From NCBI RefSeq assembly GCF_007859755.1, contig NZ_SJPF01000001.1, positions 1,166,082 through 1,230,081 on the forward strand: DNA of 64,000 nucleotides, read 5' to 3'. Position numbers and translations under genes: made by a program. Under the pieces are notes generated by a model. That model did no database searches. It saw only the letters and a program-made list of their open reading frames with translations, and was not told the DNA's origin. Positions 622 to 51,723 of this stretch are shown here, in pieces; within the stretch, counting starts at the first letter, position 1, and each line of letters begins with the position of its first letter. This DNA is from Blastopirellula retiformator (lineage in GTDB: Bacteria > Planctomycetota > Planctomycetia > Pirellulales > Pirellulaceae).

Positions 622-777
622 TAACAGTCCGTTGATTTTCTCAACGGGCTGCTGGATCGCAGGGATGCGATCCCAAAATAGCGACGTAAGTCGTTATTTT
701 GGGATCCGCGAAGAGCTATGCTCTGAGCCTGGCGAGGTTGGAAAATGCCACGAGGGCATTTTTCAACAGGCAGCTAA
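622..777 (+). repeat. Five-hairpin dispersed repeat, copy 1
   Basis: Near full-length copy of a ~155-bp element also found at 26038-26193, 51569-51723 (inverted), 45687-45760 (inverted, truncated) and 49391-49424 (internal deletion). It consists of successive small stem-loops: CAGTCCGT/ACGGGCTG, GATCGCA/TGCGATC, CAAAATAGCGAC/GTCGTTATTTTG, AGAGC/GCTCT and AAATGCC/GGCATTT. It begins TAACAG and ends CAGCTA. Here the element runs straight into the coding frame of the MFS transporter at 777, with no intergenic space and no ATG. Confidence 0.9.
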
Positions 778-2106
778 CCTTCTTCCAGTGGACCGTCTGT
801 GTGATCGCGGCGATTGGTTTCGCCTTCGACATCTACGAGCTACTGATGTTGCCGCTGATCGTTCGGTCGGCGCTACAAGAGCTGATCGGCGCCGCCCCGG
901 GTTCCGACGCGTTCAATGTTTTTGGTTGGGTTCCTCTTCTTTGTGCCGGCCATGGTCGGCGGGGTATTTGGACTAATCGGCGGCTATCTGACCGACCTGC
1001 TGGGGCGGCGGCGGGTGTTGGTCGCCAGTATCTTGCTGTACGCAGTCTCGGCGTTTGCATCCGGTTTCAGCACCGCGGTTTACATGTTGCTGGTGCTCCG
1101 CTGCTTCACGTTCATCGGCGTCTGCGTCGAGTTCGTTGCGGCGGTCGTCTGGCTGGCCGAGCTGTTCCCCGACCCGAAACGGCGCGAAGCGGTCCTTGGT
1201 TTCCCCCAAGCTTTCTCCTCGATCGGCGGGATGCTGGTAACCGGCGCCAACATGCTGGCGATTCACTATGGATCGCACCTGCCGGAAATCATGGGGGGAC
1301 ACGAAGCTTGGCGATACACGTTGATCTCCGGCGTGATCCCGGCGATTCCGCTGCTGGTGATTCGGCCGTTCTTGCCCGAGTCGCCAGCCTGGGCCGAAGA
1401 GAAAGCGGCCGGCACGCTGCAAAGTCCAAGCATCGCACAGCTCTTTTCGCCAGCGCTGCGACGCACGACGATCGTCACTACGATCATGTTTGCCTGCTCG
1501 TATGGAATCGCCTTTGGTGCGCTGCAGCAGACGCCGCGCATTGTGCCGCGCCTGCCGCAGGTGAAAGCGCAGGTCGAAGGGATGTCGGTTCCGGAGCAGA
1601 AGAAGACGGAACAAGCGGTCGCCGCCGAAGTGAACGGCGTGCAGGAAATTGGGGGTCTGGTGGGACGTTTCGTTTTGGCGGTGTTGGCGCTGGTGGTGGT
1701 CAGCCGCGTGACGCTGATCCGGATCTTCCTGTTTCCGGCATTGGTTTTCGTGCCGCTCCTTTCCTTTTATCCGGCTCGTTACAGCCTCGATCTCCTGCAT
1801 TACGGCATCTTCTTCGCCGGCGTGCTGACGGTCGGGCAGTTTAGCTTCTGGGGGAACTACCTGACGCGGGTCTATCCGCTCCACTTGCGAGGGACCGGCG
1901 AAAGCTTTGCCGCCAACATCGGGGGCCGGATGTTCGGCACTTCGTTCGCCATGGTGACCTCGCTGTTGGCGAGCGTCATGCCAGACAAATCGACCGCCTT
2001 AGCGGCCGCCGCAGTGGCGCTATTCGTCTGCACGGTGGGGGTGATCGCTTCGTTTTTCTTTCCGGAACCGCCGGCCGAGGACATCGACGAGCAATTTGGA
2101 GCGTGA
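699..2106 (+). pseudogene. MFS transporter with repeat-derived 5' end and +1 frameshift
   Basis: A 12-helix major-facilitator protein, probably a metabolite:proton symporter. The long frame from 916 encodes TM2 onwards, with the loop 2-3 signature GGYLTDLLGRRR, down to a C-terminus at 2106. TM1 (residues like FFQWTVCVIAAIGFAFDIYE) is encoded just upstream, at 780-917, in another frame. Removing one T from the T5 run at 919-923 joins the two frames into a continuous MFS protein. Upstream of 777 the same frame enters the dispersed repeat and meets only non-ATG starts (TTG at 699 or 738), so the native start appears lost. Either a decaying gene, or a functional one with a sequencing error plus a repeat-derived start. 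Some annotators would call only 916-2106. Confidence 0.7.
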
Positions 2107-2189
2107 AATCGCAGCTCCTCGGCTGGAGACGATGCAGGGAAATGGCGTAGAATCTAGGGGTTACGACTTACGCCCAGGAATCGCTCGCT

Positions 2190-3869
2190 ATGCCCCAAAA
2201 ACTTACGATTGTCATCGTCGGCGGAGTCGCCGGCGGCGCTTCGGCCGCCACCCGCGCTCGTCGCATGAACGAGTCGGCCGAGATCATCCTGTTGGAAAAG
2301 GACGAGCATGTCTCTTTCGCCAATTGCGGTCTCCCTTATTACATCGGGGGAGAGATCGCCGAGCGGCAGAAGTTGTTGGTCGCCACGGCCGATTTGCTGC
2401 GGACTCGCTTTCAAATTGACGTTCGCGCCAATCAAGAGTGCAAGAAGATCGATCGAGCCGCCAATCAGTTGTCGGTTCGCGATCATCTGAAGCAGGAAGA
2501 CTACGACCTGGCGTATGACAAGTTGATTCTCTCGCCTGGCGCGGCGCCGTTGGCGCCGCCAATGGAAAACGCCGACGCGCCCGGGGTCTTCACCCTGCGC
2601 AACTTGGCGGACGCGGACAAGATTCGGGAACATGCGATCAAGACCTCGGCCCGCAAGGCGGTCGTCGTTGGCGCCGGTTTCATCGGCTTGGAGATGGCGG
2701 AGCAGTTTCATCGGCTGGAACTGGACGTCGCCCTGGCCGAACTGCAAACGCAAGTCTTGCCGCCGCTCGATCCGGAAATGTCGTACCCTCTTGAGCAGGC
2801 GCTTCGCGATCGCGATATTCAGCTGTTCCTGGGAGACGGCATCGCCAGCGTTATGACCGACGAACGGGGCAACGCGTCGGGCGTCAAACTGCAAAGCGGC
2901 GAAGCGGCGATCGGCGACCTGGTGGTGCTGGGGCTGGGCGTTCGCCCGAACGTGCAATTGGCCAAAGCGGCGGGGCTGGAGATCGGCGCCACCGGCGGCA
3001 TCGCCGTCAATCGCTTCTCCCAAACGTCCGATCCTGATATCTACGCCGTGGGCGACGCGGCCGAATATACGTATGGCCCGACGGGCCAACAGATGCGCGT
3101 GCCGCTAGCGGGACCGGCCAATCGCGCCGGGCGACTGGCTGGCGAACATGCGGCGACCGATGGCTCGGCCGAGATGCCGGAGGTGCAGGGGACGGCGATT
3201 GTCCGCGTCTTTGAGCAAGCGGCCGGCATCACCGGCCTGAGCATGAAAATGGCCCGCAAGCTGGGCTACGATCCGCTGAGCGTCACGATCGCGGCCAATC
3301 ATCATGCCGGCTATTTTCCAGGCGCTAAACAGTTGGCCCTGAAGCTGGTCTTCGAGAAAGAGTCTGGCAAGATCTTGGGCGCCCAGTGCACCGGCGTGGC
3401 TGGGGTTGATAAGCGGATTGACGTGATCGCCACGGCGATGCAGCTAGGCGCCACTGTGCGTCAATTGGCCGGCGTCGATCTCTGCTACGCTCCGCCTTTT
3501 GGATCGGCGAAAGACCCGGTTCACATGGCGGCATTCTCGGCTTGTAACTACTTGGATGGCATTGACGCCTTCCTGGAGAGCGACGCCGATCTGGAAGGAC
3601 GCCAAGTGGTCGACGTCCGCACCGAGAAGGAGGTCAGCTCCAAGCCGCTTGCAGGCGCCGAGGGAACGCTGCCGATTCCGCTGGATGAGCTGCGGCAGCG
3701 TCTGGGAGAACTCGATCCGGCGAAACCGACCGTCGTCTCGTGCGGCGTTGGCGTTCGTGCACACGCTGCGGCCCGGATCTTACGTCAGAACGGGTTCTCC
3801 GACGTGCAGAACTTGTCCGGCGGCGCCCTGGTGCGTCAGTGGGCCGTCGCGAAGCGAACTGCCGAGTAA
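2190..3869 (+). CDS. cdr: CoA-disulfide reductase / FAD-NAD(P) oxidoreductase with C-terminal rhodanese domain
   Basis: 559 residues. It starts with an FAD-binding motif (IVGGVAGGASAA, about 8-20) and has the single active-site Cys46 in SFANCGLPYYIGG, typical of CoA-disulfide reductases and NADH oxidase relatives. A second dinucleotide fold follows (VVVGAGFIGLEMAE, ~158-171), then the FAD/dimerisation domain, and a rhodanese domain from about residue 460 with a candidate catalytic Cys518 in SCGVGVRA. Such fusions reduce CoA disulfide or persulfide/polysulfide substrates in the cytoplasm. ATG 2190 lies 84 bp after the MFS stop and the next gene follows at once, but neither neighbour explains its substrate. 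Confidence 0.88.
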   Translation: MPQKLTIVIVGGVAGGASAATRARRMNESAEIILLEKDEHVSFANCGLPYYIGGEIAERQKLLVATADLLRTRFQIDVRANQECKKIDRAANQLSVRDHLKQEDYDLAYDKLILSPGAAPLAPPMENADAPGVFTLRNLADADKIREHAIKTSARKAVVVGAGFIGLEMAEQFHRLELDVALAELQTQVLPPLDPEMSYPLEQALRDRDIQLFLGDGIASVMTDERGNASGVKLQSGEAAIGDLVVLGLGVRPNVQLAKAAGLEIGATGGIAVNRFSQTSDPDIYAVGDAAEYTYGPTGQQMRVPLAGPANRAGRLAGEHAATDGSAEMPEVQGTAIVRVFEQAAGITGLSMKMARKLGYDPLSVTIAANHHAGYFPGAKQLALKLVFEKESGKILGAQCTGVAGVDKRIDVIATAMQLGATVRQLAGVDLCYAPPFGSAKDPVHMAAFSACNYLDGIDAFLESDADLEGRQVVDVRTEKEVSSKPLAGAEGTLPIPLDELRQRLGELDPAKPTVVSCGVGVRAHAAARILRQNGFSDVQNLSGGALVRQWAVAKRTAE

Positions 3870-3975
3870 CTTTTATTCAACAAGCCGATGGCGCCGACTA
3901 CTCTGGTAATGTTTGACCAGTCGGCGCTTCTTCGGCCTCGCTCGTTTAACGCCTCCGTCCAGCACAAGGCAATCG

Positions 3976-6624
3976 ATGAATTCTGCGATCCGCTTGCGTC
4001 CCAGCGTTTTGAAAGCGAAAGAAACGCTGGCCCAAGGCCGAGAGAAACTTCGCCAACAACATGATCAAGGTTCGCCTGGCGTCCAGGTCTGTACGCGACT
4101 GACTGATCTGTTTGACCAGATCGTGCTCGATCTGTTTGAAGCGGCGCTGGTTGATCTGGGAGAAGATGGCCCCAAAGGGTTGGCGTCGCAGATCGCCTTG
4201 GTGCCGCATGGAGGCTATGGACGCCGCGACGTGGCGCCCTATTCGGACGTCGACCTGATGATCTTGCATCATCCGAAGGCGTACGCTCGCGCGGCGGAGC
4301 TGGCCCGGCGAATGGTGCAAGACATGTCGGACGTCGGGTTGGTCCTGGGACATAGTCTGCGAACGCCCAGTCAGGCGATCAGTCTCGGCTTGTCGGATGC
4401 GACCATCTTTACGTCGCTTACAGAAAATCGCTATCTGACCGGCAGCGTCTCGCTCTTTCGCAGTCTTGCCGACCAGTTGCGCTCGCGGGCCTGTCGCCGC
4501 TTTCGTTCGCTGTTTCACGGGATCATTCTGGCGCGGCAAGGAGAACGAATTCAGTATGGCGATGCGGTCTATCTGCTGGAGCCAAACCTGAAACGTTCCC
4601 GCGGCGGTCTGCGCGGTATTCAGATGGTCCGCTGGCTCGGCTTCGCGCGATGCGGCGAAGTCGAGATCGATTCGCTCAGTTTGCTGGGGCTCCTTTCTGA
4701 CCGTGATCGGCAGATTCTGCGCAACGCGCGGAACTTCTTTCTGCAGATCCGCAACGAGATGCACTTTCACGGCGGCAAGTCGACCGATCAGCTGGACCGC
4801 GGCGAACAACTTCGCTTGGCCGATCGCTACGGCTATGTCGGTACGAAAGGGATGCTGCCGGTCGAGCAATTCATGCAGCAGTACTTCTTGCACTCCAGCG
4901 GCGTGCGCAGCGTCGTTAGCAACTTCATCGAAACGATCCGCCCCCGATCGATTCTTTCCCGTTCGCTCGCTCCGCTAATGACCCATCGCGTCGACCGCGA
5001 CATCTACGTCGGTCCATCGGTGATCAGCACGTCGAAGCGATGGAAAGAGGAGAAGAGTGGGCAGATCTCCGAGATCCTGCGTCTGATGGATCTCGCCAAT
5101 CTGTACGATCGCTGGATCGATCATCCGACGTGGGAGTCGGTCCGACTGCGGATGCAGACGATCGGCGAGATCCAGCTCGATGACGAAGGGCGGAAGCGGT
5201 TTCTCTCGATCATGTCGCAACCGCCTCGTCTGGGTGAGTTGCTGGGACGCTTGAACGAATTGGGCGTGCTCGAGAAGATTATCCCTGGTATGGCGCACGC
5301 CAAAGGGTTGTTGCAGTTTAATCAATATCACAAGTACACCGTCGATGTGCACTGCATCGGTACGGTCCGCTGTGCGACAAGGTATCAAGATCGAGACGAC
5401 GCTCTTGGCGAGGCGTACCGCTCGCTCCGCTCGAAGCGAATCTTGCATTTGGCGTTGCTAATCCACGACTTGGGCAAGGGTTTTGAAGAAGATCATAGCG
5501 ACGTCGGCGCTCGCTACGCGCTAGGGACCGCCGCTAAGTTGGAGCTGACTTCTCGCGAGGCGGAGTCGCTGCGTTACTTGGTGCAAAATCATCTGGTGAT
5601 GTCGCACCTGGCCTTTCGCCGCGATACCACCGACAAAGAATTGGTCGTCCGGTTTGCGATCGACGTCGGTTCGCCGGAACTTCTGAAGATGCTATTTGTG
5701 CTGACGTGCGCCGACTTTGACGGCGTTGGCCCCGGCGTTTTGAATGACTGGAAGGTCCGCGTACTGGCCGAGCTCTATCGCGCGGCGATGGGGCATCTGG
5801 GCGTCGAAGTCGAAGGAGAGTCGTCGTCGCGAACTCGCAACAAACGCCAGCGGCTCGAGCAACTGGCTCAGAAGCAGGAAGATCACGTTTGGTTCCAGCG
5901 TCAGTTGGAAGCGTTGCCGCCGAGTTACCTGAAGGAAACGCCGGTCGATCAGATTATCGAGGAACTGTCGCAACTGCGAACATTGCCCGAGCAGGACGCC
6001 TTCGTCAGCACCAACTATCTGGAAGATCGCGACGTCATCGAGATCACCGTCGGCACGCACGAGGAAGCGGCGCCGGGCGTGTTTCACCGGATCGCCGGCG
6101 CGGTCACCAGCTTGCGGATGAGCATTCTGTCAGCCGAGATCAACACGTTGGCCCGGGGACTGGTGCTCGATCGCTTCTTTGTCGTCGATCAAGAGTCGAA
6201 CGGTGAGCCCGCCGACGAACGGATGGAGGATCTGGCGGCGAAGATCAAGAAGATGGTGCTCGACAAGAACGATGCGCCGCCCAATTTCCGGGCTCGTTGG
6301 ACTAGCAGAGCGTCGCGAACGGCCGCGCATGTCCAGGTGTTGCCGACGCAGGTAAAGATCGACAACGACACCTCTGAGATCTACACGATCATCGAAATCT
6401 TCGCCCACAATCAGTTAGGGCTGCTCTATACGATCTCGCGGACGATCTACCAGTTGGGGCTGAATGTGGCGATCGCCAAAATTGCGACTCACCTGGATCA
6501 AGTCGTCGACGTTTTTTACGTCGCGGACGATGAAGGACGAAAGATCGAAGACGAAGGACGGCTCCAAGAGATTATCGCCCGCTTGGGCGAAGCGGTCGAT
6601 GAGTTTAGCGCTCAGCGGGACTAG
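3976..6624 (+). CDS. glnD: Bifunctional uridylyltransferase/uridylyl-removing enzyme GlnD
   Basis: 883 residues from the ATG at 3976, which is preferred over an in-frame TTG at 3913 because family homology begins near here. Order of domains: nucleotidyltransferase with GGYGRRDVAPYSDVD (~78-93), the GlnD-specific linker, an HD phosphohydrolase domain (LIHDLGKGFEEDHS, ~493-507), and two ACT domains (about 680-750 and 800-875). It uridylylates and deuridylylates PII proteins in response to glutamine and so controls nitrogen assimilation. No PII or glutamine synthetase gene lies nearby. Length and layout are normal for the family. Confidence 0.95.
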   Translation: MNSAIRLRPSVLKAKETLAQGREKLRQQHDQGSPGVQVCTRLTDLFDQIVLDLFEAALVDLGEDGPKGLASQIALVPHGGYGRRDVAPYSDVDLMILHHPKAYARAAELARRMVQDMSDVGLVLGHSLRTPSQAISLGLSDATIFTSLTENRYLTGSVSLFRSLADQLRSRACRRFRSLFHGIILARQGERIQYGDAVYLLEPNLKRSRGGLRGIQMVRWLGFARCGEVEIDSLSLLGLLSDRDRQILRNARNFFLQIRNEMHFHGGKSTDQLDRGEQLRLADRYGYVGTKGMLPVEQFMQQYFLHSSGVRSVVSNFIETIRPRSILSRSLAPLMTHRVDRDIYVGPSVISTSKRWKEEKSGQISEILRLMDLANLYDRWIDHPTWESVRLRMQTIGEIQLDDEGRKRFLSIMSQPPRLGELLGRLNELGVLEKIIPGMAHAKGLLQFNQYHKYTVDVHCIGTVRCATRYQDRDDALGEAYRSLRSKRILHLALLIHDLGKGFEEDHSDVGARYALGTAAKLELTSREAESLRYLVQNHLVMSHLAFRRDTTDKELVVRFAIDVGSPELLKMLFVLTCADFDGVGPGVLNDWKVRVLAELYRAAMGHLGVEVEGESSSRTRNKRQRLEQLAQKQEDHVWFQRQLEALPPSYLKETPVDQIIEELSQLRTLPEQDAFVSTNYLEDRDVIEITVGTHEEAAPGVFHRIAGAVTSLRMSILSAEINTLARGLVLDRFFVVDQESNGEPADERMEDLAAKIKKMVLDKNDAPPNFRARWTSRASRTAAHVQVLPTQVKIDNDTSEIYTIIEIFAHNQLGLLYTISRTIYQLGLNVAIAKIATHLDQVVDVFYVADDEGRKIEDEGRLQEIIARLGEAVDEFSAQRD

Positions 6625-6631
6625 CGACCGC

Positions 6632-7990
6632 TTAGCGAGGTGAGAGTTCCTCGACGTACTGACGCCACTTCGGTTCAAACTCTTCCAGCGACTCGTTAAT
6701 CAGGTTCTCAAGACGCTGGCGACGCGCAGGGTCGGCGGTGACCATCTTTTCGAGACGATTCCCTTCGAATAGCCGCTCTTCAAACACAAGTCGCCACGCC
6801 AATCCCCAGGCCAGCGCATAGTCGAGCTGTTCGCGATGCGGCGACATCGTTAATACAAAGGCGGCGCTGTCGCGCTCAAGCATCTCGGCCAACAAAGGAC
6901 GATCTGACGCGGCCAGGCGTCGTTTCAGTTCGGCGACCAGGTCGGCCGGCGGCGCGTCGATGCGAAACGAGTCGCCTTCCAGTTGCCCATGCTCAAAGAG
7001 CTGCGCCAGCCCTTCGTTGAGCCAAATCGGCACGTCGTACTGAGCCACCGGGAAGACGAAGCATTCCAGGTAGGCGTGAAACGCTTCGTGATAGATGCGC
7101 CGGGTCGTATCTTCGATCGCTTTCTCGAAAGCGTCGGCGTTGGTTCGTTCAACCGCGCGGATGCGACTGAGCGCTTCACGACGTTGCCGGAGAAACGCTT
7201 CGCGGCGAACCGAGACTTCTTGCTCGATCTCTTCCGGTGGGATCTTCGCGGCCGCCAGCTCTTTGCGATAGGCTTCTAAACGTTCGGGCAAACCTCGTCG
7301 CAGTTCGTCCCACCAGCCGATTTGCCGCTTGTGCTCTTCGGCGGCGCGCTTGGCTTGGGCCTGGAGGCGGCGGAAGTCGGTTCCAACGAGAACCAAGCCT
7401 TCCTGCGGAAGGAAGATCGCAGGGTTGCGAACGGCGGCGCCGAGCGTCGCCATGTAGTCGGCGTAGTCGCGCATGTCGTCGAACAGAATCAGACGCAGGC
7501 GGATATCGCTCTCTTTTCGCGGCGGAATCATGTGCTGAAACGCGCGGGAGGCTTGTTCCAGGCGGACCGCCATTCGCCGCGTTAGCGATTCGTCCAAGCG
7601 ACTGTAAAAATCATACCCTTCACCGGTGACCACGCGATAGGTAACGCCATCTCGCTTGACCGTTTCCAATTGGATCGTTTCGCGATTCTCGGCCTCAAAC
7701 TGCAGGCGGTTGCGGAGACGTTCGACTCGTTGGATTAGTTGCGAGCGCGACTCGGGATCGACTTCGGTGATCGCGCGGATTTCGCTCTGGGGGAAATTGC
7801 GAACCACGCCGAACATCGGCTTGCCGGCCGGCTTGACGATCTCGAGAAAGTCGAGGCCGTCGGCTTGGCGTTCGACGATCATCCCCTCCAGCGTTCGCCC
7901 GTCGCTGAGCGTCAACGTATCGCTTTCGGCCGCGGCGAGCAGCGCCTGACAGCAAAGCAACAGGGACAAGGTGAGAGTTCGGATCAACAC
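6632..7990 (-). CDS. Exported gluzincin-type metalloprotease (DUF1570-like)
   Basis: 452 residues with an N-terminal signal peptide (LTLSLLLCCQALLAAAES). A zinc-protease motif HEAFH at 301-305 is followed by LNEGLAQLFEHGQ, which supplies the downstream glutamate of a gluzincin. Residues 25-110 form a small beta domain common in planctomycete secreted proteins, and 200-290 are helical and charged. Probably a periplasmic or surface peptidase; no substrate is evident. The start is GTG at 7988-7990. It converges on glnD with 7 bp between the stops, so the two are not an operon. Confidence 0.78.
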   Translation of the reverse strand: MLIRTLTLSLLLCCQALLAAAESDTLTLSDGRTLEGMIVERQADGLDFLEIVKPAGKPMFGVVRNFPQSEIRAITEVDPESRSQLIQRVERLRNRLQFEAENRETIQLETVKRDGVTYRVVTGEGYDFYSRLDESLTRRMAVRLEQASRAFQHMIPPRKESDIRLRLILFDDMRDYADYMATLGAAVRNPAIFLPQEGLVLVGTDFRRLQAQAKRAAEEHKRQIGWWDELRRGLPERLEAYRKELAAAKIPPEEIEQEVSVRREAFLRQRREALSRIRAVERTNADAFEKAIEDTTRRIYHEAFHAYLECFVFPVAQYDVPIWLNEGLAQLFEHGQLEGDSFRIDAPPADLVAELKRRLAASDRPLLAEMLERDSAAFVLTMSPHREQLDYALAWGLAWRLVFEERLFEGNRLEKMVTADPARRQRLENLINESLEEFEPKWRQYVEELSPR

Positions 7991-8080
7991 GCGAAGCCTA
8001 TGGGCGGAAGGGGAACGGGAAAAGCTCCCCCCATTCTTGTCGCAAAAAGTCCGCGTGGCAACGGCGAGTCGCTAAGCCGG

Positions 8081-10565: not shown

Positions 10566-12746
10566 ATGACTCGACTTCGCCTTGTTTCCGCCCTGTTGTC
10601 GACGCTGCTCGCCCTCGGGGCGACCCCGGCGTTGGCCGAAGTTCGCCTGCCTGGCTTCTTTGGCGATCACATGGTTTTGCAGCAACAGATGCCGCTGCCG
10701 GTTTGGGGCTGGGCCGATCCCGGCCAACAGGTAACCGTCACCCTGGGCGAAGCCGCGGCGACCGCCAAGGCCGATGACAAGGGGAACTGGAAGGTCGAAC
10801 TGCCGGCGATGGAAGCCGGGGGCGGTCCAATGAAGCTGACGGTCGCCGCCGGCGAACGGAAGTTGACCCTCAGCGATATTCTGCTGGGCGAGGTCTGGCT
10901 TTGCTCTGGCCAGTCGAACATGGAGTGGGTCGTCCGTTCGTCGAAGAACGCCGCCGCAGAAATCGCCGCCGCCAACTATCCCGAAATTCGTCAGATCAAG
11001 TTCAGTCATCAGACGTCCGCTGCGCCGCAAGACGACGTGAAAGGGACCTGGACGATCTGCTCGCCGGAGACGGCCGGCAACTTCACGGCGTGCGGCTACT
11101 TCATGGGCCGCAAGTTGTACCAAGAGTTGAATGTGCCGATCGGGCTGATCAATTCGTCGTGGGGCGGCACGCGGATCGAACCGTGGACCCCGCCGGTTGG
11201 TTTCGCCAAAGTCGCAGAGCTGAAAGACCTGTCGCAGAGGGTGCAGCGCCGCACGCCGGGCACGCCGCAGAACAGGGCGCTGGCCAAGGGGCACATGGCG
11301 GCGACCGAAAAGTGGCTGGCCGAAGCGAAAGCGAAAGACGCCGCCGGCGAAGCAATTCCGCCGAGTCCCGCCGTTCCTGGTGATCTGCAGCCGCACGTCT
11401 CGGCAACCGACCCGACGGCGATCTACAACTCGATGATCCATCCGCTGATTGGCCTGCCGTTCCGTGGCGCCATCTGGTACCAGGGAGAATCGAACCATGG
11501 CGAGGGAATGCTCTACAAGTACAAGATGGAAGCCTTGATCGGCGGCTGGCGAAAGCTGTGGAACATGGGCGACTTCTCCTTCTTCTACGTGCAGATCGCG
11601 CCGTATCAGTATGGTGACGAAAAGCCGGAAGTCTTGCCGGTCTTCTGGGAAGCCCAGGCCGCCGCGCTCGATATCCCCAAGACCGGGATGGTGGTGATCA
11701 ACGACGTCGCCACGCTCAACGACATTCACCCGCCGATGAAGCAGGAAGTCGGCCTGCGTCTGGCCAATCTCGCCCTCCGCGACGTTTACGGTCAGAAGGA
11801 TGTGATCGCCGACGGACCGACCTTCAAAGAGCTGAAGGAAGAGAAGGGCGCCTTGCGCGTGGTGTTCGACAACGTCGCCGCTGGTCTGAAGTCGAGCGAC
11901 GATCAACCGCTGACTCACTTCGAGGTGATTGGCGTCGACACTGGTTGGATGAAGGCCGACGCTAAGATCGACGGCGATTCGGTGATTCTGACTTCCAGCG
12001 AAGTCAACCAGCCGGTCGCGATGCGGTTCGCTTGGCACAAGTTGGCCGAGCCGAACCTGGTTAACAGCGCCGGTCTCCCGACTTCGGCGTTCCGCGCCGG
12101 CGAAGTGCCGAAGCCCGACGCGTTGCCGAAAGTGGGCGCCGCCAAAGGCTACAAGTTGATCTACGATCTCGATCTGGCGACGCTGCCGCGCGGCGTCAAG
12201 TACGATGTCGACAACAGCCAGCAAAAGCTCGCCTTTGATCGGATCGGCTATCTGCTGGAACTGCAAACCTCCGGCGGTGAGCGCAAAGCCGCCTTTGTGT
12301 CGATGGACGCGTTCACCGACGACCTGTCGAAGATCGGCGTGCCAACTTTCACCAGCGGCGCTGTGTTCCAACAGCCGGTCAAGTCGTTGACCGTGTGGGC
12401 CAGCGGCGCCGACCTGAAGACTGGAGTCAATCTGGATGGCGGCAACATCGAGTTTTGGCCGCACAACTATGGAACGCCAAACGCCGCCAAGGTTCCGGGC
12501 GCTTCCGACCAAGTCTATGACTTTGGCGACGTTAAGGCCGAACCGGTCAACGGCTATGGCAGCATGCAAGTGCACAACGGCGCCGCCAAGCAAACGGTTT
12601 TCGCCCTCAATCACTGGGGCGCTGGCGCCAATGCCGACATCGGCATCGGCAACAGCAGCGGCGAAACCCGCGATTGGACCTTCAACGGCAACGCTTCGAA
12701 CTACATCCATAAGCGTCTGCGGGTGTTGGTCCGCCCGGCCCAGTAA
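10566..12746 (+). CDS. Exported sialate O-acetylesterase-like SGNH hydrolase
   Basis: 726 residues with a signal peptide (residues 1-24, LVSALLSTLLALGATPALA). It has an N-terminal beta domain, then the SGNH/GDSL catalytic block CSGQSNMEW with GQSNM at 115-119, AIWYQGESN near 305, and DIHPPMK near 388 carrying the likely catalytic Asp-His. This is the sialate O-acetylesterase family (removal of acetyl groups from sialic acids or other glycans). The C-terminal ~190 residues are an additional domain seen in planctomycete secreted proteins. It is followed 54 bp downstream by another exported SGNH hydrolase, suggesting a small glycan-deacetylation unit. Confidence 0.85.
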   Translation: MTRLRLVSALLSTLLALGATPALAEVRLPGFFGDHMVLQQQMPLPVWGWADPGQQVTVTLGEAAATAKADDKGNWKVELPAMEAGGGPMKLTVAAGERKLTLSDILLGEVWLCSGQSNMEWVVRSSKNAAAEIAAANYPEIRQIKFSHQTSAAPQDDVKGTWTICSPETAGNFTACGYFMGRKLYQELNVPIGLINSSWGGTRIEPWTPPVGFAKVAELKDLSQRVQRRTPGTPQNRALAKGHMAATEKWLAEAKAKDAAGEAIPPSPAVPGDLQPHVSATDPTAIYNSMIHPLIGLPFRGAIWYQGESNHGEGMLYKYKMEALIGGWRKLWNMGDFSFFYVQIAPYQYGDEKPEVLPVFWEAQAAALDIPKTGMVVINDVATLNDIHPPMKQEVGLRLANLALRDVYGQKDVIADGPTFKELKEEKGALRVVFDNVAAGLKSSDDQPLTHFEVIGVDTGWMKADAKIDGDSVILTSSEVNQPVAMRFAWHKLAEPNLVNSAGLPTSAFRAGEVPKPDALPKVGAAKGYKLIYDLDLATLPRGVKYDVDNSQQKLAFDRIGYLLELQTSGGERKAAFVSMDAFTDDLSKIGVPTFTSGAVFQQPVKSLTVWASGADLKTGVNLDGGNIEFWPHNYGTPNAAKVPGASDQVYDFGDVKAEPVNGYGSMQVHNGAAKQTVFALNHWGAGANADIGIGNSSGETRDWTFNGNASNYIHKRLRVLVRPAQ

Positions 12747-25998: not shown

Positions 25999-26030
25999 AA
26001 AAAGCGACGCTAGAGGGCGTCGCTTTTTTT
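25999..26030 (+). terminator. Rho-independent terminator after DUF4404 gene
   Basis: Stem AAAAAGCGACGC / GCGTCGCTTTTT with a short loop, ending in a 7-T run. It immediately precedes copy 2 of the five-hairpin repeat. Confidence 0.9.
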
Positions 26031-26037
26031 GTGCGTT

Positions 26038-26193
26038 TAGCAGTCCGTTGATTTTCTCGACGGACTGCGTGATCGCACGGATGCGATCCCAAAATAACGA
26101 CGTAAGTCGTTATTTTGCGAGCCGCGAAGAGCTATGCTCTGAGCCTGGCGAGGTTGTAAAATGCCACGATGGCATTTTTCAACAGGTAGCTAG
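26038..26193 (+). repeat. Five-hairpin dispersed repeat, copy 2
   Basis: Full-length copy, with all five stems well formed: CAGTCCGT/ACGGACTG, GATCGCA/TGCGATC, CAAAATAACGAC/GTCGTTATTTTG, AGAGC/GCTCT and AAATGCCA/TGGCATTT. It begins TAGCAG and ends CAGGTAGCTA. It lies between the DUF4404 terminator and the stop of the convergent beta-propeller gene (31 bp away). Confidence 0.92.
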
Positions 26194-44113: not shown

Positions 44114-44143
44114 TTGGATTTCCTGCAGCGTGATTTCCTGCAG
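44114..44143 (+). repeat. 15-bp tandem duplication
   Basis: GATTTCCTGCAGCGT followed directly by GATTTCCTGCAGAGT, just beyond the stop of the L7/L12-like gene. Minor local duplication. Confidence 0.5.
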
Positions 44144-44155
44144 AGTGGTCCCAGC

Positions 44156-45661: not shown

Positions 45662-45686
45662 TCCCTTCCAGCTGGTGGCCAATCTT

Positions 45687-45760
45687 TAGCTGCCTGTTGA
45701 AAAATGCCATCGTGGCATTTTCCAACCTCGCCAGGCTCAGAGCGTAGCTCTTCGCGGCTC
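45687..45760 (-). repeat. Five-hairpin dispersed repeat, copy 3 (truncated)
   Basis: Inverted copy holding only the last two stems (AAATGCC/GGCATTT and AGAGC/GCTCT) and the adjoining GCGAGG and GAGCCGCGAAG segments. It breaks off at the coding region of the diguanylate cyclase, whose final codons and TGA stop are read from this repeat. Confidence 0.88.
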
Positions 45761-46741
45761 GACAATCGGTTCGCCGGCGCCGTGCAGTTGCTCGAGTTCA
45801 CGCACTTCCGACAGCAGCGTGTCGGCCTCGTCAACCGCTTGCGCTTCGATTTCCGGAGTGATCTCCAGGCAAGGCAGGATCCGCGTGCCGTCATGGTAGA
45901 AGTTGCAGTTGCGGCCGTTCGCTTTGGCTCGATAAAGGGCGGCGTCGGCGTGAGCCAGTAACGTGCGCGCATCGTCTTCACCACGCGCCTGGGAAAGGCC
46001 GCCGCTGATGGTGACGCCCAGCTGCGCTTCGGCACTGGTCCGCAGTCGCTCGGCGAAAATGCAGGCGCCGTAGATGTCGGTCGACGGCATCAACACCACG
46101 AACTCTTCGCCGCCGTAGCGGGTGACGATGTCGGTTTCGCGGACGCAGTTGTCGATCACGTTCGAGATCTCCACCAGCACGCGGTCGCCATGCAGGTGAC
46201 CATGCTGATCGTTGACCCGTTTGAAGTGGTCGACGTCTAAGATGCAGAGCGAGAAGGTGAAGTCGTAACGACCCTTCATTGAGATCATGTTTTCCAGCGA
46301 GTCGTCCAGCGCTCGGCGGTTGCTGAGCCCGGTCAGCGGATCGGTTCGCGACTCGGTGAAGGTCATCAACAGGCTGGCTTGCTGGCGGATTTCGTCATAG
46401 GCGTTGGCGATCTGCGACGAGAGCCGCATGGTGGGGCTGAGCATTTGCTCCGCCTCTTCGCACAGGTCTTGCCAGGCCTGGGTGTCTTTGGCGTCGCCCA
46501 GTTCGTTAATCCGCTCTTTGAAGTGCAGAATGCTGTTCTGATGCGTCGTCAGGTTGCGGCGGATGTCCCGCGAGATGTCCTCCAACTGACGGATCACGGC
46601 CTGGGCTCGTTTTACTTCGCGACGCGCGCGGCTCTGTTCGGCGACAGCGGCGCTGGCGTTGCGCTTCCCAAGGAAGTAGCCGATCAAAGCGACAAGCGCC
46701 AATGAGACCGGGACCGGGATTCCGAGCATCCAGTTTTCCAT
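45737..46741 (-). CDS. Diguanylate cyclase (GGDEF) with N-terminal membrane segment
   Basis: 334 residues. N-terminal helix VPVSLALVALIGYFLGK, a helical linker, then a GGDEF domain with the active-site motif GGEEF at 210-214 and an RxxD inhibitory site (RETD) five residues before the RYGGEEF segment. It makes c-di-GMP and should be feedback-inhibited. The PilZ protein at 8081-8506 is a possible receptor. The last residues (EPRRATL) and stop are encoded by the truncated five-hairpin repeat, so the native C-terminus was replaced or extended. Confidence 0.92.
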   Translation of the reverse strand: MENWMLGIPVPVSLALVALIGYFLGKRNASAAVAEQSRARREVKRAQAVIRQLEDISRDIRRNLTTHQNSILHFKERINELGDAKDTQAWQDLCEEAEQMLSPTMRLSSQIANAYDEIRQQASLLMTFTESRTDPLTGLSNRRALDDSLENMISMKGRYDFTFSLCILDVDHFKRVNDQHGHLHGDRVLVEISNVIDNCVRETDIVTRYGGEEFVVLMPSTDIYGACIFAERLRTSAEAQLGVTISGGLSQARGEDDARTLLAHADAALYRAKANGRNCNFYHDGTRILPCLEITPEIEAQAVDEADTLLSEVRELEQLHGAGEPIVEPRRATL

Positions 46742-46802
46742 TTCTCGAACTTCCTCTCGAGCTGCACTTCAGGCGGTGGGGAGTTAGACGTGGGAGAAAC
46801 GC

Positions 46803-46991
46803 CTAGGCGTTGGTGCGATTTCCGATTCCACGCATACACAGCACGCCGAAAATAACCGCGAAGACGAATACGTAGGTCCAGTCGCCCGAGTCCATTTGCT
46901 CGATGAACTGCTCTAGACTCTTGAACGAAGTGTGGAGGTATTCGCGCATTTCGGAATTGCCGGCAAGATTTGCGGAGCCGTCGTTGTTCAT
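46803..46991 (-). CDS. Small single-pass membrane protein (62 aa)
   Basis: From ATG 46991: an acidic N-terminus (FKSLEQFIEQMDSGDW) and a membrane segment (YVFVFAVIFGVLCMRGIGN). The longer frame to 47123 has no protein character. It lies between the diguanylate cyclase (61 bp downstream) and the chemoreceptor on the same strand. Function unknown; an accessory of signalling proteins is possible. Confidence 0.6.
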   Translation of the reverse strand: MNNDGSANLAGNSEMREYLHTSFKSLEQFIEQMDSGDWTYVFVFAVIFGVLCMRGIGNRTNA

Positions 46992-47125
46992 AGGGAAGTT
47001 TACGTCACAATTACGACGCGGCTGAAAATGCAGGCCCCAGTTGGGGAATTGGCCTGGGAGATCGGGATCGTAGCGATTGTGCCGATTATCGGGGCGTGCC
47101 GATTGCGTAGAGTGCGCAAACAAAT

Positions 47126-47148
47126 GCCCGCCTTCGGGGAAGGCGGGC
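47126..47148 (-). terminator. Terminator after the chemoreceptor gene
   Basis: GCCCGCCTT-CGGGG-AAGGCGGGC, followed on the minus strand by ATTTGTTTG, 33 bp past the stop. Confidence 0.8.
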
Positions 47149-47180
47149 GAGGGTGGTCGAAGGTGGAAGGTCGCCGCCGA

Positions 47181-49022
47181 CTAGCAGCGGAACTGACCCA
47201 CCATGTGTTGGATCTTGTCGGCCACGCGGGTCAGTTCCAGACTGACGTTGCGGGTCTGGGCCGAGTCTTCGGCGGCGTCGTCCGCCGACTTTTTGACCCC
47301 GACGATGTTGCGGCTGACTTCGGTGCTGGCCTGCGTCGATTGCTCCAGGCTGACCGTCACGCCGCGAACGTTGGTCGATGCCGACGACAGATTTCGTGAG
47401 ATCTCTTTGGTCGCGATGCTTTGCTCTTCGACCGCCGCGGCGATCGAGCGCGAGACCGAGTCGACGTTGTGAATCACCGTCAGCACTTTGCCGATCGATT
47501 CGACGGCGTCTTGCGACGATTCCTGAATTCGCGAGATCCGCTGACGAATGTCTTCGGTTGCCGTGGTGGTCTGGCGGGCGAGGTCTTTCACTTCGGTCGC
47601 CACCACGGCGAATCCCTTACCGGCGTCGCCGGCTCGGGCTGCTTCGATCGTGGCGTTGAGGGCCAGCAAGTTGGTTTGCTCGGCGATTTCCTGAATCACT
47701 TCGGTCACCTTGCCGATTTCGATCGCAGACAAGCCGAGCGCCGAAACGGTCGCGTTGCTCGCTTCAACCAACTGCGACGCTTCTCGCGACGTGTTGGTGG
47801 CGTTTTCGGCGTTGCGGGCAATTTCGACCACGCTGGAGGTCATCTCGTCGACCGCCGCGGCGACTGACTCGATGGTGCGGTTCATTTCGCGGGTGCTGGT
47901 CGAGATCGACTCCATATTGACCGACATCTCTTCGGCGGCGGCGGCGACGCTGGTCGATTGCTCCTGCGTGCTTCTGGCGCCGTCGGTCATGCGACCCGAG
48001 GTCGCGTTCAGCATGTTCGACGAACTGCTGAGCGTTTCGGTATCTCCCATCAGTTCGCGAATGATCTCTTGGATCTTGGTGACGAACAGATTGAACGAAC
48101 CGGCCAGGCGGCCGAGCTCGTCACGTTTGTTTTCCGGCAGACGCTGAGTCAGGTCGCCATCGCCTTGGGCGATTTCGTCCAGCATCTTGGTGGTCGCGTT
48201 GAGCGGCAACAGGATCGAGCGAGCGATCAGCCATCCGCAGACCGACATGGCGACGATCGACAGACCGCCGATCGTCAGCAGAACCCAGATGTTCTGGGCC
48301 GCTTCAGCGCGGATCTGAACGGCCGTTTCCAACACCGCGTCGCGGGCGGCGTTCGCTTCGGCTCGCTTCTGGGCGATCCGTTCTTGTTTCGCTTCCAACT
48401 TGGCGCGGGTCCGAGCGAGCGATTGTGCTTGGGCCTCGGTCACCGCGTCTAGGTGACCGCGGAAGTCGCTAAACGACTCCAGGCCATAGCCATAGTCGCT
48501 GGCCGCTTGGACTTCCGCTTTTTTCGCCTCGTTCTGAGCGTCGGTGAAGATCTTGCGGGACGCTTCGGCCCACAGCTTGAATTTCGCCATCAGACCGTTG
48601 TAGACGGTTTGAACTTCTGGATCGTTCATGCCGTTGGCGGCCAGACGAAGCCGTTTGTCGGCTTGGCCGATGTTTTCTTCTTGCGTCGCTTGAGCGGCTT
48701 GGAATTGCTCTTCGCTGGTCGCCGCCAGGGCGAGTTTTTCAGCGATGATCGCCTGGTGAACGTCGCGATCGGCCTGCAGCATCAGTTCGATGCTCTCCTG
48801 CATCTGACGAAGCTCGGGCAGGTCTTTATTGATGACCGGCAGCATTTCGTCTTCGATCAGCGGAGCGATTTCGTGATCAATCAGGTGGACGAATTTTTCG
48901 TCGACGACTTGGTCGAGTTGTCCGAGCAGATAGCTGGAAGTCCGCCAGCCGAGGCCGACGATGAAGGCCAGTGCCAAGCAACTGAGCGTTACTTGAACGA
49001 TGATTTTTCGTTGGATGCTCAT
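47181..49022 (-). CDS. Methyl-accepting chemotaxis protein
   Basis: 613 residues: TM1 near 8-28, a long helical periplasmic sensor, TM2 near 248-270 ([20 protein letters not shown]), HAMP (~270-325) and the cytoplasmic signalling hairpin with the conserved tip ([35 protein letters not shown]). Senses a periplasmic ligand or membrane state and controls a CheA kinase; no che genes are nearby. The 44-bp dispersed repeat (copy B) lies 31 bp before its start codon. Confidence 0.93.
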
Positions 49023-49052
49023 GAAACTAATCCCGGACTAATCAATTGCTTT

Positions 49053-49096
49053 CCGCAACCAGCCAGAACGATACAGACGGAGGAAAACCGATCTAG
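49053..49096 (+). repeat. 44-bp dispersed repeat, copy B
   Basis: 42 of 44 positions identical to 41358-41401, same orientation. Here it lies upstream of and antisense to the chemoreceptor gene, not followed by the hairpin found at copy A. Confidence 0.8.
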
Positions 49097-49390
49097 GGAG
49101 CGCGTTGAGCAAAGATAGGTTGACGATCACAAAAACCAATGTGGTCATTCCGAGATTGCAGTGCACCGTTCGGCGCGGGGGAAAGCGACTATGCCGATTG
49201 TGCAGCGTGGATCCCTCAGAAGTCGTAAAATTCGCCGATTCTGGCGGCACGGTTCATTCCCTCTTTTCCCAATAACCGGGCGAACTTGTACCGAAATCGC
49301 CGGGCCAGACCCGCGCCAATTCGGTGAACCGCAAGCGCAAAAGCGCAGAACTGCGACTTCAAACCGGGTTTGATACCGCCGACGAAAGCT
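49097..49390. other. Intergenic stretch upstream of chemoreceptor
   Basis: About 290 bp between the 44-bp repeat and the short copy of the five-hairpin repeat; probably contains the chemoreceptor promoter. No gene recognised. Confidence 0.35.
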
Positions 49391-49424
49391 TAGCAGTCCT
49401 TTGATTTTCTCAACAGGCAGTTAG
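49391..49424 (+). repeat. Five-hairpin repeat, copy 4 (internal deletion)
   Basis: TAGCAGTCCTTTGATTTTCT then CAACAGGCAGTTAG: the left end of the element joined directly to its right end, with the central ~120 bp missing. The EamA stop codon (TTA on this strand) lies inside the right terminus at 49421-49423. Confidence 0.8.
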
Positions 49425-49855
49425 CGTTTCCAAGCCAGCAGCATCACTCCGGCGCCAACCAGGGCAATCGCCAACCACTCGCGCCCCGCCGGGCGATCTC
49501 CCAAGAAGATCACGGCAAAGATCGCCACCAAAACGACGCTGAACTTGTCGACCGGCGCGACCTGCGAAGCTTCGCCGACCTTCAAAGCGCGAAAGTAACA
49601 AACCCACGAAGCGCCCGTCGCCAGACCCGAGGCGACGAGGAAGCCGATCGTCTTGCCCGAGAGCTGGCGCGGATCGCTCAGCGCCCCAGTCGCCCACACG
49701 AACGCTGCCAGCACGACCAGGATGACGATCGTCCGGATCAACGTGGCGTAGTCCGAGTTGACTCCCTCGAGCCCGATCTTGGCGAAGATCGCCGTCAGCG
49801 CCGCAAACCCGGCCGAGAGAATCGCCCACAGGAACCAGTTATGCGAGATATCCAT
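49421..49855 (-). CDS. EamA-domain half-transporter (DMT superfamily)
   Basis: 144 residues from ATG 49855. Five hydrophobic helices (FLWAILSAGFAALTAIFAKI, LIRTIVILVVLAAFVWATG, TIGFLVASGLATGASWVCYF, FSVVLVAIFAVIFLGD, WLAIALVGAGVMLLAW) with the EamA motif around APVDKFSVVLVAIFAV. A single-domain version that would need to dimerise. Substrate unknown. The stop codon is in the edge of repeat copy 4. Confidence 0.85.
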   Translation of the reverse strand: MDISHNWFLWAILSAGFAALTAIFAKIGLEGVNSDYATLIRTIVILVVLAAFVWATGALSDPRQLSGKTIGFLVASGLATGASWVCYFRALKVGEASQVAPVDKFSVVLVAIFAVIFLGDRPAGREWLAIALVGAGVMLLAWKR

Positions 49856-50221
49856 TGAGAGGCTCCTGAAGTTGTCGTCTCTTTGGGAGCGCCGAGGGAT
49901 ACGATTGAAGCGCATTAGAGAAAGTGTGTGATCACGAATTTACGTTAGCTGTTCGATCAAAAGTGGACGTCCACGTTGCGGCGCCAAATAGGCTGCAAGC
50001 GGTGTCTTTTCCGACTCGCGGACCCAGTTAAAGAGAGGTTTCGCGCATCGTCCCATTCTTATCTGCGAGAGGCTCGCCAGGCGACGGTTTTTAGGATTTT
50101 TGAGATTTTCCTCTTTCGCCTTTTTTGCGTGAATTTGGGAGGATTTTGAAGGCTCATCTCCCCCAAATTTAGTAATGTGAGGTTAGGGCAGTCTAGTCGT
50201 AAACTGAATTGGGAGTTGAAC
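49856..50221. other. Divergent intergenic region between EamA and PhoD genes
   Basis: 366 bp, locally T-rich around 50090-50170. No gene recognised; presumably holds both promoters. Confidence 0.35.
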
Positions 50222-51571
50222 ATGCGCCGTCGATCGTCACTTAAACTGCTGGCTGCCGGACTGCCGCTGACATTTGCTGCACAAAGCTTTGGAAAGAGTA
50301 CGACCGGACCCTACTTCGGGAGCGGAGTCAAAGTCGGGGAAGTCACCTCCGACTCAGCCATTCTCTGGACCCGGACCTCCTCGGCAGATGAATGCGACTC
50401 CAATTTCGCATTGCCGGGCATCGCCGCCGACGTGCGCGTGCGCTACTGGATCGCCGAGCAATCGGGTTCCGAAAAAACGACCGCCTGGCAGTCGACGACG
50501 GCCGATGGCGACTTCGCCACGCAGATTCCGTTGAGCGATCTCTCTCCGGGCGTTAAGTATCGCTTTGTCTTGGAAGCGAAGAACTCGCTGGGGGCGAATC
50601 AGACCGACGGAACCTTCAAGACCGCGCCCCTTGCCGAAACGATCACGCCGATTCGCTTCGTCGTCACTTCCTGTCATAAGTACGCGACGATGGATGCGCC
50701 CGGCCTGGGGCAAAAAATCTATCTAGAGATGCTGAAGCTAAAGCCGCAGTTTTTTGTCCATACGGGCGATGTCGTCTACTACGACGGCGATACCGAACCG
50801 CTGGCAAGGAACGTCGAATTGGCTCGCTTGCATTGGCACCGGATGGACAACCTGCCATACCATCGCCAGTTCTATCCGAACATGGCCTCCTACTTTATGA
50901 AGGATGATCACGACGTCTTGAAAGACGATGCGTGGCCTGGTCAAAAATTTGGTGATCTTACCTTTGCGGAAGGATTGGCGATTTTTGATGAACAGAACCC
51001 GATGGGTGAGTCTCCTTACCGCACCGTTCGCTGGGGACGAGATCTCCAGGTCTGGATTGTGGAAGGCCGCGACTTTCGCAGCCCCAATCCTATGGCGGAT
51101 GGTCCCCAGAAATCGATCTGGGGCGAGCAGCAGTGGGAATGGCTGCAGCAAACGGTCGCCGCATCGGACGCCAAATTCAAGATACTGATCAGTCCGACTC
51201 CAATCGTCGGACCTGATCGACCGCAGGGGAAGAACGACAACCACTCCAACGCAGTCTGGACCTCCGAGGGAAATCGCGCTCGCAAGTTCCTGGTCGACAA
51301 CCATATGCACGTCATCTGCGGCGATCGTCATTGGCAATATCACTCGGTTGATGATGCGACGGGGCTCAACGAGTTCTGCAGTGGGCCCAGCACCAACAAA
51401 CATGCAGGGGGCTGGAATCAAAAGAACTTCCTGCCGGAGCACCGCTTTTTGCGGGTCGCGGGAGGATTTCTGTGCGTCGACGTTGATCGGACCGGCGAGC
51501 AGCCGGGACTGCTATTTCGCCACATTGACGTCGATGGCGCCGTCGTCTACGAAAAGCGATTTGAAGGCTAG
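50222..51571 (+). CDS. PhoD-like alkaline phosphatase/phosphodiesterase
   Basis: 449 residues from ATG 50222; the N-terminus MRRRSSLKLLAAGLPLTFAA is a Tat-type signal. An N-terminal Ig-like domain (GEVTSDSAILWTRTSS) precedes the metallophosphatase with FVTSCHKY, FFVHTGDVVYYDGD, MKDDHDVLKDD and HVICGDRHWQYHS as metal-binding segments. It hydrolyses phosphate esters in the periplasm and would help phosphate scavenging. The TAG stop at 51569-51571 forms the first bases of repeat copy 5. Confidence 0.88.
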   Translation: MRRRSSLKLLAAGLPLTFAAQSFGKSTTGPYFGSGVKVGEVTSDSAILWTRTSSADECDSNFALPGIAADVRVRYWIAEQSGSEKTTAWQSTTADGDFATQIPLSDLSPGVKYRFVLEAKNSLGANQTDGTFKTAPLAETITPIRFVVTSCHKYATMDAPGLGQKIYLEMLKLKPQFFVHTGDVVYYDGDTEPLARNVELARLHWHRMDNLPYHRQFYPNMASYFMKDDHDVLKDDAWPGQKFGDLTFAEGLAIFDEQNPMGESPYRTVRWGRDLQVWIVEGRDFRSPNPMADGPQKSIWGEQQWEWLQQTVAASDAKFKILISPTPIVGPDRPQGKNDNHSNAVWTSEGNRARKFLVDNHMHVICGDRHWQYHSVDDATGLNEFCSGPSTNKHAGGWNQKNFLPEHRFLRVAGGFLCVDVDRTGEQPGLLFRHIDVDGAVVYEKRFEG

Positions 51572-51723
51572 CAGCCTGGTGAAAAATGCCATCGTGGCAT
51601 TTTCCAACCTCGCCAGGCTCAGAGCATAGCTCTTCGCGGCTCGCAAAATAACGACTTACGTCGTTATTTTGGGATCGCATCCGTGCGATCACGCAGTCCG
51701 TCGAGAAAATCAACGGACTGCTA
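51569..51723 (-). repeat. Five-hairpin dispersed repeat, copy 5
   Basis: Full-length copy in inverted orientation, with stems matching copy 2 almost base for base. CTAG stands at both edges. It sits between the PhoD stop (shared bases) and the fosmidomycin-resistance-type gene and could terminate transcription between them. Confidence 0.92.

What the first reader, a model, noticed from the sequence alone, without database searches (positions are those of the whole stretch)
622..51723. A modular five-hairpin element dispersed over the window
A ~155-bp sequence recurs at 622-777, 26038-26193 and 51569-51723 (inverted), truncated at 45687-45760 (inverted) and collapsed at 49391-49424. It consists almost wholly of five consecutive palindromes with distinct stems and short loops, bounded by TAGCAG and CAGCTA. 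It encodes no protein and does not look like a classical transposon. Compensatory change is visible: in copy 1 the first stem is CAGTCCGT/ACGGGCTG (G-T pairing kept). It could be a MITE, a structured RNA or a bidirectional terminator cassette. Five copies in 64 kb suggests hundreds per genome.
Basis: seen in the sequence. Interest (0 to 1): 0.85.

Follow-up and report, generated by a model that had tools for sequence, protein, structure and literature searches.

The report
Mobile five-hairpin repeat in a planctomycete
A 149-base non-coding element with five hairpins is present about 300 times in the genome of a Blastopirellula-group bacterium, behaves like a miniature transposon, and shares its folded core with a single-copy relative lying in a tRNA gene cluster of another genus.

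Summary
The element is 149 bp (CAGTCCGTTGA...TCAACAGGCWG), flanked by a 4-bp YTAR duplication: 64 of 90 copies have identical 4-mers, shuffled mean 14.9. Its core occurs 300 times in the 6.2-Mb genome, control 0. The three other genomes of the genus, one identified as Blastopirellula marina, hold 5, 7 and 10 covariance-model matches. Copies carry about 1% rare changes, so the burst looks recent. It is best read as a MITE. The probable mobiliser is an IS1182-like transposase family: seven near-full-length relatives all end in CAGCNNGTTGA beside YTAR, with identical 4-mers in 5 of 7; only remnants were found here. The hairpins covary (15 of 48 pairs; shuffles 3.0). Another IS, of the IS4 family, sits inside hairpin 5 at 7 of 10 sites seen. 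Unexpectedly, four genomes of another genus carry one copy of the core, without the transposon ends, at the same place in a tRNA array. Rfam has no matching family at gathering scores. Direction of descent and any RNA function are undecided.

The parts
621..777 (+). Copy 1: element 625-773 with CTAA at 621-624 and 774-777; subfamily with stem-1 half ACGGGCTG
   Evidence: used as query, where 40 of 376 candidate places were scored and all 40 match over 151-156 bases
26037..26193 (+). Copy 2: element 26041-26189, TTAG left and CTAG right; starts about 8 bases after a T-run-ended hairpin at 25999-26028
51568..51724 (-). Copy 3: element 51572-51720, CTAG on both sides
45686..45760 (-). Copy 4: right part only (hairpins 4 and 5), CTAA at 45686-45689
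49390..49424 (+). Copy 5: collapsed 27-bp element (left arm joined to right end in one palindrome), TTAG on both sides; same junction as a copy at G000:C4:753810

Best explanation
It is a MITE: a non-autonomous DNA transposon of 149 bp with short imperfect terminal inverted repeats (CAGTCCGTTGA / CWGCCTGTTGA). It inserts into YTAR and duplicates those 4 bp. It was most probably moved in trans by an IS1182-like DDE transposase whose own ends are CAGCNNGTTGA at the same target; in this genome only remnants of that transposase were found. A recent burst gave about 300 copies. Its interior is a folded core of hairpins 2-5, homologous to a single-copy structured element in a tRNA array of another genus of the family; the whole is a structured sequence carried between transposon ends. 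Once inserted, copies lie mainly between genes near 3' ends and are probably near neutral. Hairpin 5 is in turn a frequent landing site for an IS4-family IS. Shown: copies, target duplication, ends, nested IS, covariation, homology of the core. Inferred: the identity of the mobiliser, neutrality of single copies, and any RNA function.
For: 300 copies of the core, control 0. Identical 4-mers at both ends in 64 of 90 full-length copies; shuffled mean 14.9, maximum 27 in 2000 shuffles; commonest CTAA, TTAG, CTAG, TTAA. Mean 1.7 rare changes per 150 bp in 96 copies. IS1182-like IS in relatives: the seven held loci with a near-full-length match (six genomes) have CAGCNNGTTGA at all 14 ends, beside YTAR, with identical 4-mers in 5 of 7. 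In this genome a 405-aa relative (L057) has CTAG|CAGCCCGTTGAA on one side; NCBIfam IS1182 model 163 bits, under its cut-off of 270. Covariation: 15 of 48 pairs with both sides changed, shuffles 3.0, slid versions 3-7. Single-copy core in genus g43: E 2.1e-19, 1.2e-18, 4.5e-18, 2.2e-10, between tRNA-Asp and the next tRNA gene in all four.
Against: No intact IS with these ends was found in this genome. In 1.24 Mb (about 20%) no unexplained pair of ends was seen; genome-wide, YTARCAGCCCGTTGA occurs 4 times. Only three transposase Pfam families were searched here (PF01609, PF01797, PF13751), so a mobiliser of another family is not excluded. The element's ends differ from CAGCCCGTTGA at 1-2 of 11 positions. 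26 of 90 copies lack identical 4-mers. Rare stem changes in single copies show no clear strand bias (21 G-T against 17 A-C outcomes), so there is no sign of selection for RNA pairing copy by copy. Template-switch correction of palindromes can mimic covariation.
Confidence: 0.82

Rival explanations
1. The interior is a functional non-coding RNA family, ancestrally single-copy beside tRNA genes, that was captured between IS1182-type ends and so became mobile in Blastopirellula.
For: Four genomes of genus g43 carry one copy each, without hairpin 1 or the right terminal repeat, at the same place in a tRNA array. Stems 2, 3 and 5 are exchanged while the NGGA loop (4 of 4), the ACGATG apex (3 of 4) and the stretch GAGCCGCGAGGAGCTNTGCTCTGAGCTTGGCGAGG (3 of 4) are kept. 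All four fold better than 200 of 200 shuffles. The + strand folds better than the - strand in 15 of 17 sequences tried, and the four common stem polymorphisms of the genome copies are all G-T against Watson-Crick on the + strand.
Against: The element lies antisense to the tRNA genes. L277 lacks hairpin 4. In L276, L277 and the trimmed L275 the minimum-energy fold departs from the expected plan around hairpin 4. A fifth g43 genome (G043) was not among the matches. Two of the four strand differences in g43 are under 0.5 kcal/mol. No expression data. It could equally be an old insertion.
Confidence: 0.3
2. The tRNA-array copy is an old insertion of the MITE that lost its ends and was kept or drifted; all covariation comes from palindrome repair (template switching) and not from RNA selection.
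For: Old copies shared by two Blastopirellula genomes (L131/L133) persist as partly decayed insertions. 6 of 81 rare stem changes have the partner changed too, and rare stem changes show no clear G-T excess (21 against 17).
Against: In g43 stems are exchanged with loops conserved, and all four beat every shuffle, while 9 and 4 of 200 shuffles match L131 and L133; but the z-scores overlap (-2.8 to -5.4 against -1.9 and -2.9).
Confidence: 0.4
3. Bidirectional terminator or mRNA 3'-end cassette kept for its function.
For: Among 96 full-length copies, 63 gene 3' ends but 12 gene 5' ends lie within 60 bp (no random control for this count); in tandem gene pairs the element points against the genes in 32 of 44 (p = 0.004, one of several tests). 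Hairpin 5 carries A and T runs around a short GC stem.
Against: The stop-codon share of insertions on C4 equals that of free YTAR sites (9 of 49 against 311 of 1754, odds ratio 1.04). The element end facing a gene 3' end is not significantly biased (37 against 26, p = 0.21). The terminator scan around copy 2 called no element hairpin. Avoiding promoters is expected of any tolerated insertion.
Confidence: 0.1
4. REP/REPIN-type palindromes moved by a RAYT (Y1 transposase).
For: The genome has 21 Y1_Tnp matches, and the element is palindromic and intergenic.
Against: 4-bp duplications and terminal inverted repeats fit a DDE enzyme. In the 10 Y1 loci held (of 21 matches), one (L062) has an ordinary element copy and four (L063, L064, L070, L071) have lone end-like sites with 1-2 mismatches; none has a pair of ends around the gene.
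Confidence: 0.03

Closest known systems
Bacterial MITEs (Nezha, RUP, NEMIS)
   Same: Short, no gene, terminal inverted repeats, target duplication, high copy number, foldable; an IS with similar ends as presumed helper (general features from passages of PMC3049150, and PMC3733652)
   Different: Five separate hairpins with covariation; a homologous single-copy core without the ends in another genus; no intact helper found in the host
BOX elements of Streptococcus pneumoniae (passages of PMC3049150)
   Same: Modular, strongly folded small interspersed repeats
   Different: BOX varies by the number of boxB modules; here module variants look like deletions, and ends and 4-bp YTAR duplication resemble IS1182-like IS
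bcr1-bcr18 repeats of the Bacillus cereus group (passages of PMC3446304)
   Same: bcr1-bcr3 are called MITE-like there, bcr10 and bcr18 have conserved RNA structure, and about half of the copies are found within transcripts
   Different: Unrelated host; I know of no tRNA-array relative (recalled, not searched)
IS1182-like insertion sequences
   Same: Ends CAGCNNGTTGA beside YTAR in the seven near-full-length relatives
   Different: The element codes for nothing; its ends differ from CAGCCCGTTGA at 1-2 of 11 positions; the covariance model finds no element core in those loci
IS4 family, subgroup IS4 (passages of PMC2266710)
   Same: This concerns the IS nested in hairpin 5: NCBIfam IS4 model at 217 bits over a cut-off of 115; ends compatible with -AATR; 9-13 bp duplicated
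   Different: A passenger of the element, not its mobiliser; often lands in hairpin 5 of this repeat

Membership tests
MITE | Short, non-coding, terminal inverted repeats | tested here: met
   149 bp; ends CAGTCCGTTGA and CWGCCTGTTGA
MITE | Target-site duplication | tested here: met
   64 of 90 identical 4-mers, shuffled mean 14.9
MITE | High copy number with closely similar copies | tested here: met
   300 cores; 1.7 rare changes per copy in 96 copies, chosen partly as best matches
MITE | Autonomous partner with matching ends in the same genome (usual, not defining: MITEs can be orphans) | tested here: inconclusive
   Only an apparently truncated IS1182-like gene with one matching end (L057) and a fragment. 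Three transposase families were searched and 20% of the genome scanned for ends; the genome is 97% complete
Derivative of IS1182-like IS | Same ends and target | tested here: inconclusive
   Same YTAR target; 1-2 of 11 end positions differ; no element core in those IS loci
REP/RAYT | GTAG or CGTC tag at one end; Y1 transposase linked | tested here: not met
   Both ends carry YTAR; no pair of ends around a Y1 gene in the 10 of 21 loci held
Any Rfam 15 family | Covariance-model match at the gathering score | tested here: not met
   0 in the window; in five loci searched at E up to 5 none of the 78 listed hits overlaps the element
Structured RNA | Covariation of stems | tested here: met
   15 of 48 pairs, 0 of 500 shuffles as high; template-switch repair not excluded
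Structured RNA | Transcription | not testable with these tools
   No RNA data

The most novel reading that the evidence does not exclude
An undescribed structured RNA, resident as a single gene in tRNA arrays of one genus of this planctomycete family, was captured between IS1182-type transposon ends in Blastopirellula and amplified to hundreds of copies: a bacterial counterpart, by DNA transposition, of RNA-gene-derived SINEs.
Probability: 0.25. Interest if true: 0.8.

Novelty: new variant of a known kind. Interest (0 to 1): 0.57.

Why it matters
It gives a recent-looking MITE burst (about 300 copies in one species; 5, 7 and 10 covariance-model matches in three congeners). Paper searches on MITEs or palindromes in this phylum or genus returned only 7, 2 and 1 papers (listings, plus passages of one). 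It also carries a structured core with an apparent single-copy relative beside tRNA genes. That makes testable whether non-coding RNA genes can become mobile DNA in bacteria, or mobile repeats become RNA genes. The nested IS4-family insertions in one hairpin offer a natural case of hairpin-targeted insertion.

Tried and rejected
Cognate transposase: the DDE_Tnp_1 genes L051/L053/L054/L061 first looked like the partner because element ends flank them. Reading the junctions of L051, L053 and L061 showed an IS4-family IS inserted inside hairpin 5, with TGCCACGAGGGCA (TGCCACGATGGCA on one side in L051) on both sides and in both orientations. It was rejected as mobiliser. Lone end-like sites lie beside two of the ten copies L040-L049 of a DDE gene of about 406 aa (L041, L044) but not beside seven others (L046 has an ordinary element copy), so they are not its ends. 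More distant relatives of the IS1182-like gene (about 25% identity: L231, L233) have CAGGCTGCTGA at both ends. Y1/RAYT genes were considered and rejected.

Stop-codon targeting: many insertions abut stop codons, but the share equals that of free YTAR sites. A loose count of 37 stop-abutting ends used a wider window and is not relied on.

Lower rare-change rate in stems: 81 changes in 96 stem sites against 83 in 54 unpaired sites gave p = 0.0002. 29 of the 83 fall in the last seven columns, which touch the variable right end, and 30 loci were chosen for an exact core, so I do not use it.

Terminator role: not supported. Viral, plasmid and phage searches: a long exact core pattern gave 0 viral contigs; a shorter one gave 3, of which one (L287) holds a real copy; plasmids 0 with the window copy as query; phages 0 with the g43 sequence as query. 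A pattern for another subterminal motif gave 0. Paper searches for IS5/YTAR, IS1182 target and REP-as-IS-target gave 0.
Full report
WHAT IS THERE. The element runs from CAG to CWG, 149 bp. The bases TAG/CTA counted into it belong to a 4-bp duplication of the target YTAR. Copy 2 has five hairpins and folds far better than shuffled sequence as RNA and as DNA. Rfam gave no match at its gathering scores in the window.

COPY NUMBER AND TARGET. A 31-base core pattern occurs 300 times in the genome (152 and 148 per strand) and its control 0 times. In 1.24 Mb of held sequence (two contigs plus the window) there are 86 places, of which 56 are full length and 30 partial. Among 96 distinct full-length copies, chosen partly because searches listed them as best matches, both ends could be placed in 90; 64 of these have identical 4-mers, and random pairing gives 14.9. 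The 32 others were printed there: 26 with unequal 4-mers and 6 whose right end my pattern missed, at least one of which (window copy 3) is intact by eye. Copies carry on average 1.7 rare changes; positions 19, 24, 29 and 30 have near-equal counts and appear to split the copies into two main subfamilies.

MODULES. The partial places are internal deletions, truncations or copies cut by the nested IS; by eye several deletions lie at short repeats. Examples are hairpin 1 joined to hairpins 4-5 (C4:371047, C4:48969, C4:289442), loss of hairpin 3 (C8:3590), and a 27-bp minimal palindrome found twice with the same junction and with target duplications (window 49394-49420 and C4:753810).

WHO MOVES IT. 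No intact IS with these ends was found. In the 1.24-Mb sample, 155 of 162 end-like sites lie in the copies, and the other 7 are pieces of copies, one other fragment or chance. Genome-wide, YTARCAGCCCGTTGA occurs 4 times; one site borders a DDE gene whose model match begins only at position 53, so it appears to lack its start (L057). That protein matches DUF772, DDE_Tnp_1 and DDE_Tnp_1_6 in Pfam, and best the IS1182 model in NCBIfam, below its cut-off. Relatives of it occur in 22 of 119 genomes of the family, this one included. The seven held loci with a near-full-length match at over 50% identity (six genomes) have CAGCNNGTTGA at all 14 ends and YTAR beside them, and 5 of 7 have identical 4-mers. 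One, L218, continues GTTGATTTT at both ends as does the element's left end. This makes an IS1182-like transposase the probable mobiliser, now broken or lost here. Only three transposase Pfam families were searched in this genome, so another mobiliser is possible.

THE NESTED IS. An IS4-family IS (426 aa, NCBIfam 217 bits over a cut-off of 115) lies in hairpin 5 at 7 of 10 distinct sites found in the held sequence, in both orientations and in both subfamilies. The three others have targets rich in G or C (sites merged by me from 13 end flanks, exact ends only). The duplicated part is 9-13 bp, depending on where the IS end is set. Of ten loci of relatives in other planctomycetes that I scanned for ends, seven show similar ones (CAATACTGTTCGG-like), and no target duplication printed there resembles hairpin 5; no element copy was found by covariance model in the 25 loci of such relatives.

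RELATIVES OF THE ELEMENT. Searching by DNA, 3 of 60 genomes of the family match: two of the genus and one weak 28-base match in another (G033). All 4 genomes of the genus match. By covariance model the other three hold 10, 7 and 5 matches. G060 is Blastopirellula marina DSM 3645: a stretch is identical to the named record, whose contig length also agrees. Some old copies sit at the same place in two species (L131/L133, loci 88% identical over 3.1 kb; and L134/L138 by eye). Of 199 genomes of the family, 8 match: the 4 of this genus and 4 of another genus, g43, one match each (stricter filters, which lose weak matches). G043, also g43, was not among the matches; how many other g43 genomes were in the sample is not known to me.

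THE tRNA-ARRAY COPY. In the four g43 genomes the match lies between tRNA-Asp(GTC) and the next tRNA gene (Val(TAC); in one ARAGORN calls Cys) of a long array with similar gene order, on the strand opposite to the tRNAs. It has no hairpin 1 and no right terminal repeat that I can see. Stems 2, 3 and 5 differ among the species and from the element, yet stay paired; the loop NGGA, the ACGATG apex (ATGATG in one) and the 35-base stretch around hairpin 4 are kept, except that L277 lacks hairpin 4 itself. Each folds better than all 200 shuffles (z -2.8 to -5.4), but in L276, L277 and the trimmed L275 the minimum-energy fold pairs differently around hairpin 4.

RNA OR DNA. On 30 sequences, 15 of 48 pairs have changes on both sides (shuffles 3.0, slid structures 3-7). 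The + strand folds better in 15 of 17 sequences, two of them by under 0.5 kcal/mol. Among distinct non-Watson-Crick states in nine divergent copies, 16 are G-T, 13 A-C and 25 others; among rare stem changes of the 96 genome copies, 21 give G-T, 17 A-C, 34 others and 9 Watson-Crick pairs. So family-level covariation is clear, while single copies show no sign of selection for pairing. Palindrome repair by template switching remains a possible cause of part of it.

WHERE COPIES SIT. With home-made gene calls (768 genes on C4), 2 of 64 copies of at least 60 bp on C4 lie inside called ORFs, against 1770 of 3000 random YTAR sites; 18 are between convergent genes, 12 between divergent and 32 between tandem genes (random: 204, 390, 605). 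Across 96 full-length copies 1 lies inside an ORF, and in tandem pairs the element points against the genes in 32 of 44 (p = 0.004, one of several tests). Stop-codon insertions are not in excess.

VERDICT. A recent-looking MITE burst with a probable IS1182-like mobiliser, carrying a covarying folded core. The core's single-copy relative in tRNA arrays is the unexpected part, and its direction of descent is open. I found nothing on this repeat in the papers I could search (listings only, plus passages of PMC3733652). The species name of the window was not established.

Noticed in passing
G000:C4:842935, C8:3693, L021, L051, L053, L054, L061: An IS4-family IS sits in hairpin 5 of the element at 7 of 10 sites seen, in both orientations, with 9-13 bp duplicated.
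   Followed up: yes
L274-L277, L282, L283: Long tRNA arrays (19 and 22 tRNA genes in the 18-19 kb read around two of them) in genus g43, with one odd tRNA call (Cys, anticodon ACA, where the relatives have Val).
   Followed up: partly
L152:11852-12004 (G000:C4:31852): A divergent five-hairpin copy, about 71% identical, beside a truncated young copy; possibly an older subfamily.
   Followed up: partly
L287 (IMGVR_UViG_2891333991_000001), 11124-11262: A near-complete element copy on a contig classed as viral; the stretch held ends inside the element.
   Followed up: no
G000:C4:293892-293932: A palindrome made of two right ends (hairpin 5 only), next to another end-like sequence TTAACAGCCCGTTGAAAAAC.
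   Followed up: no
L070; also L066, L067: A RAYT-like Y1 transposase gene flanked by AAAAGGTGTCAGGACTCTTT inverted repeats (L070); the same string lies upstream of two others, possibly a second palindromic repeat system.
   Followed up: no
L060, L061: Runs of N inside two IS4-family copies in the held genome.
   Followed up: no
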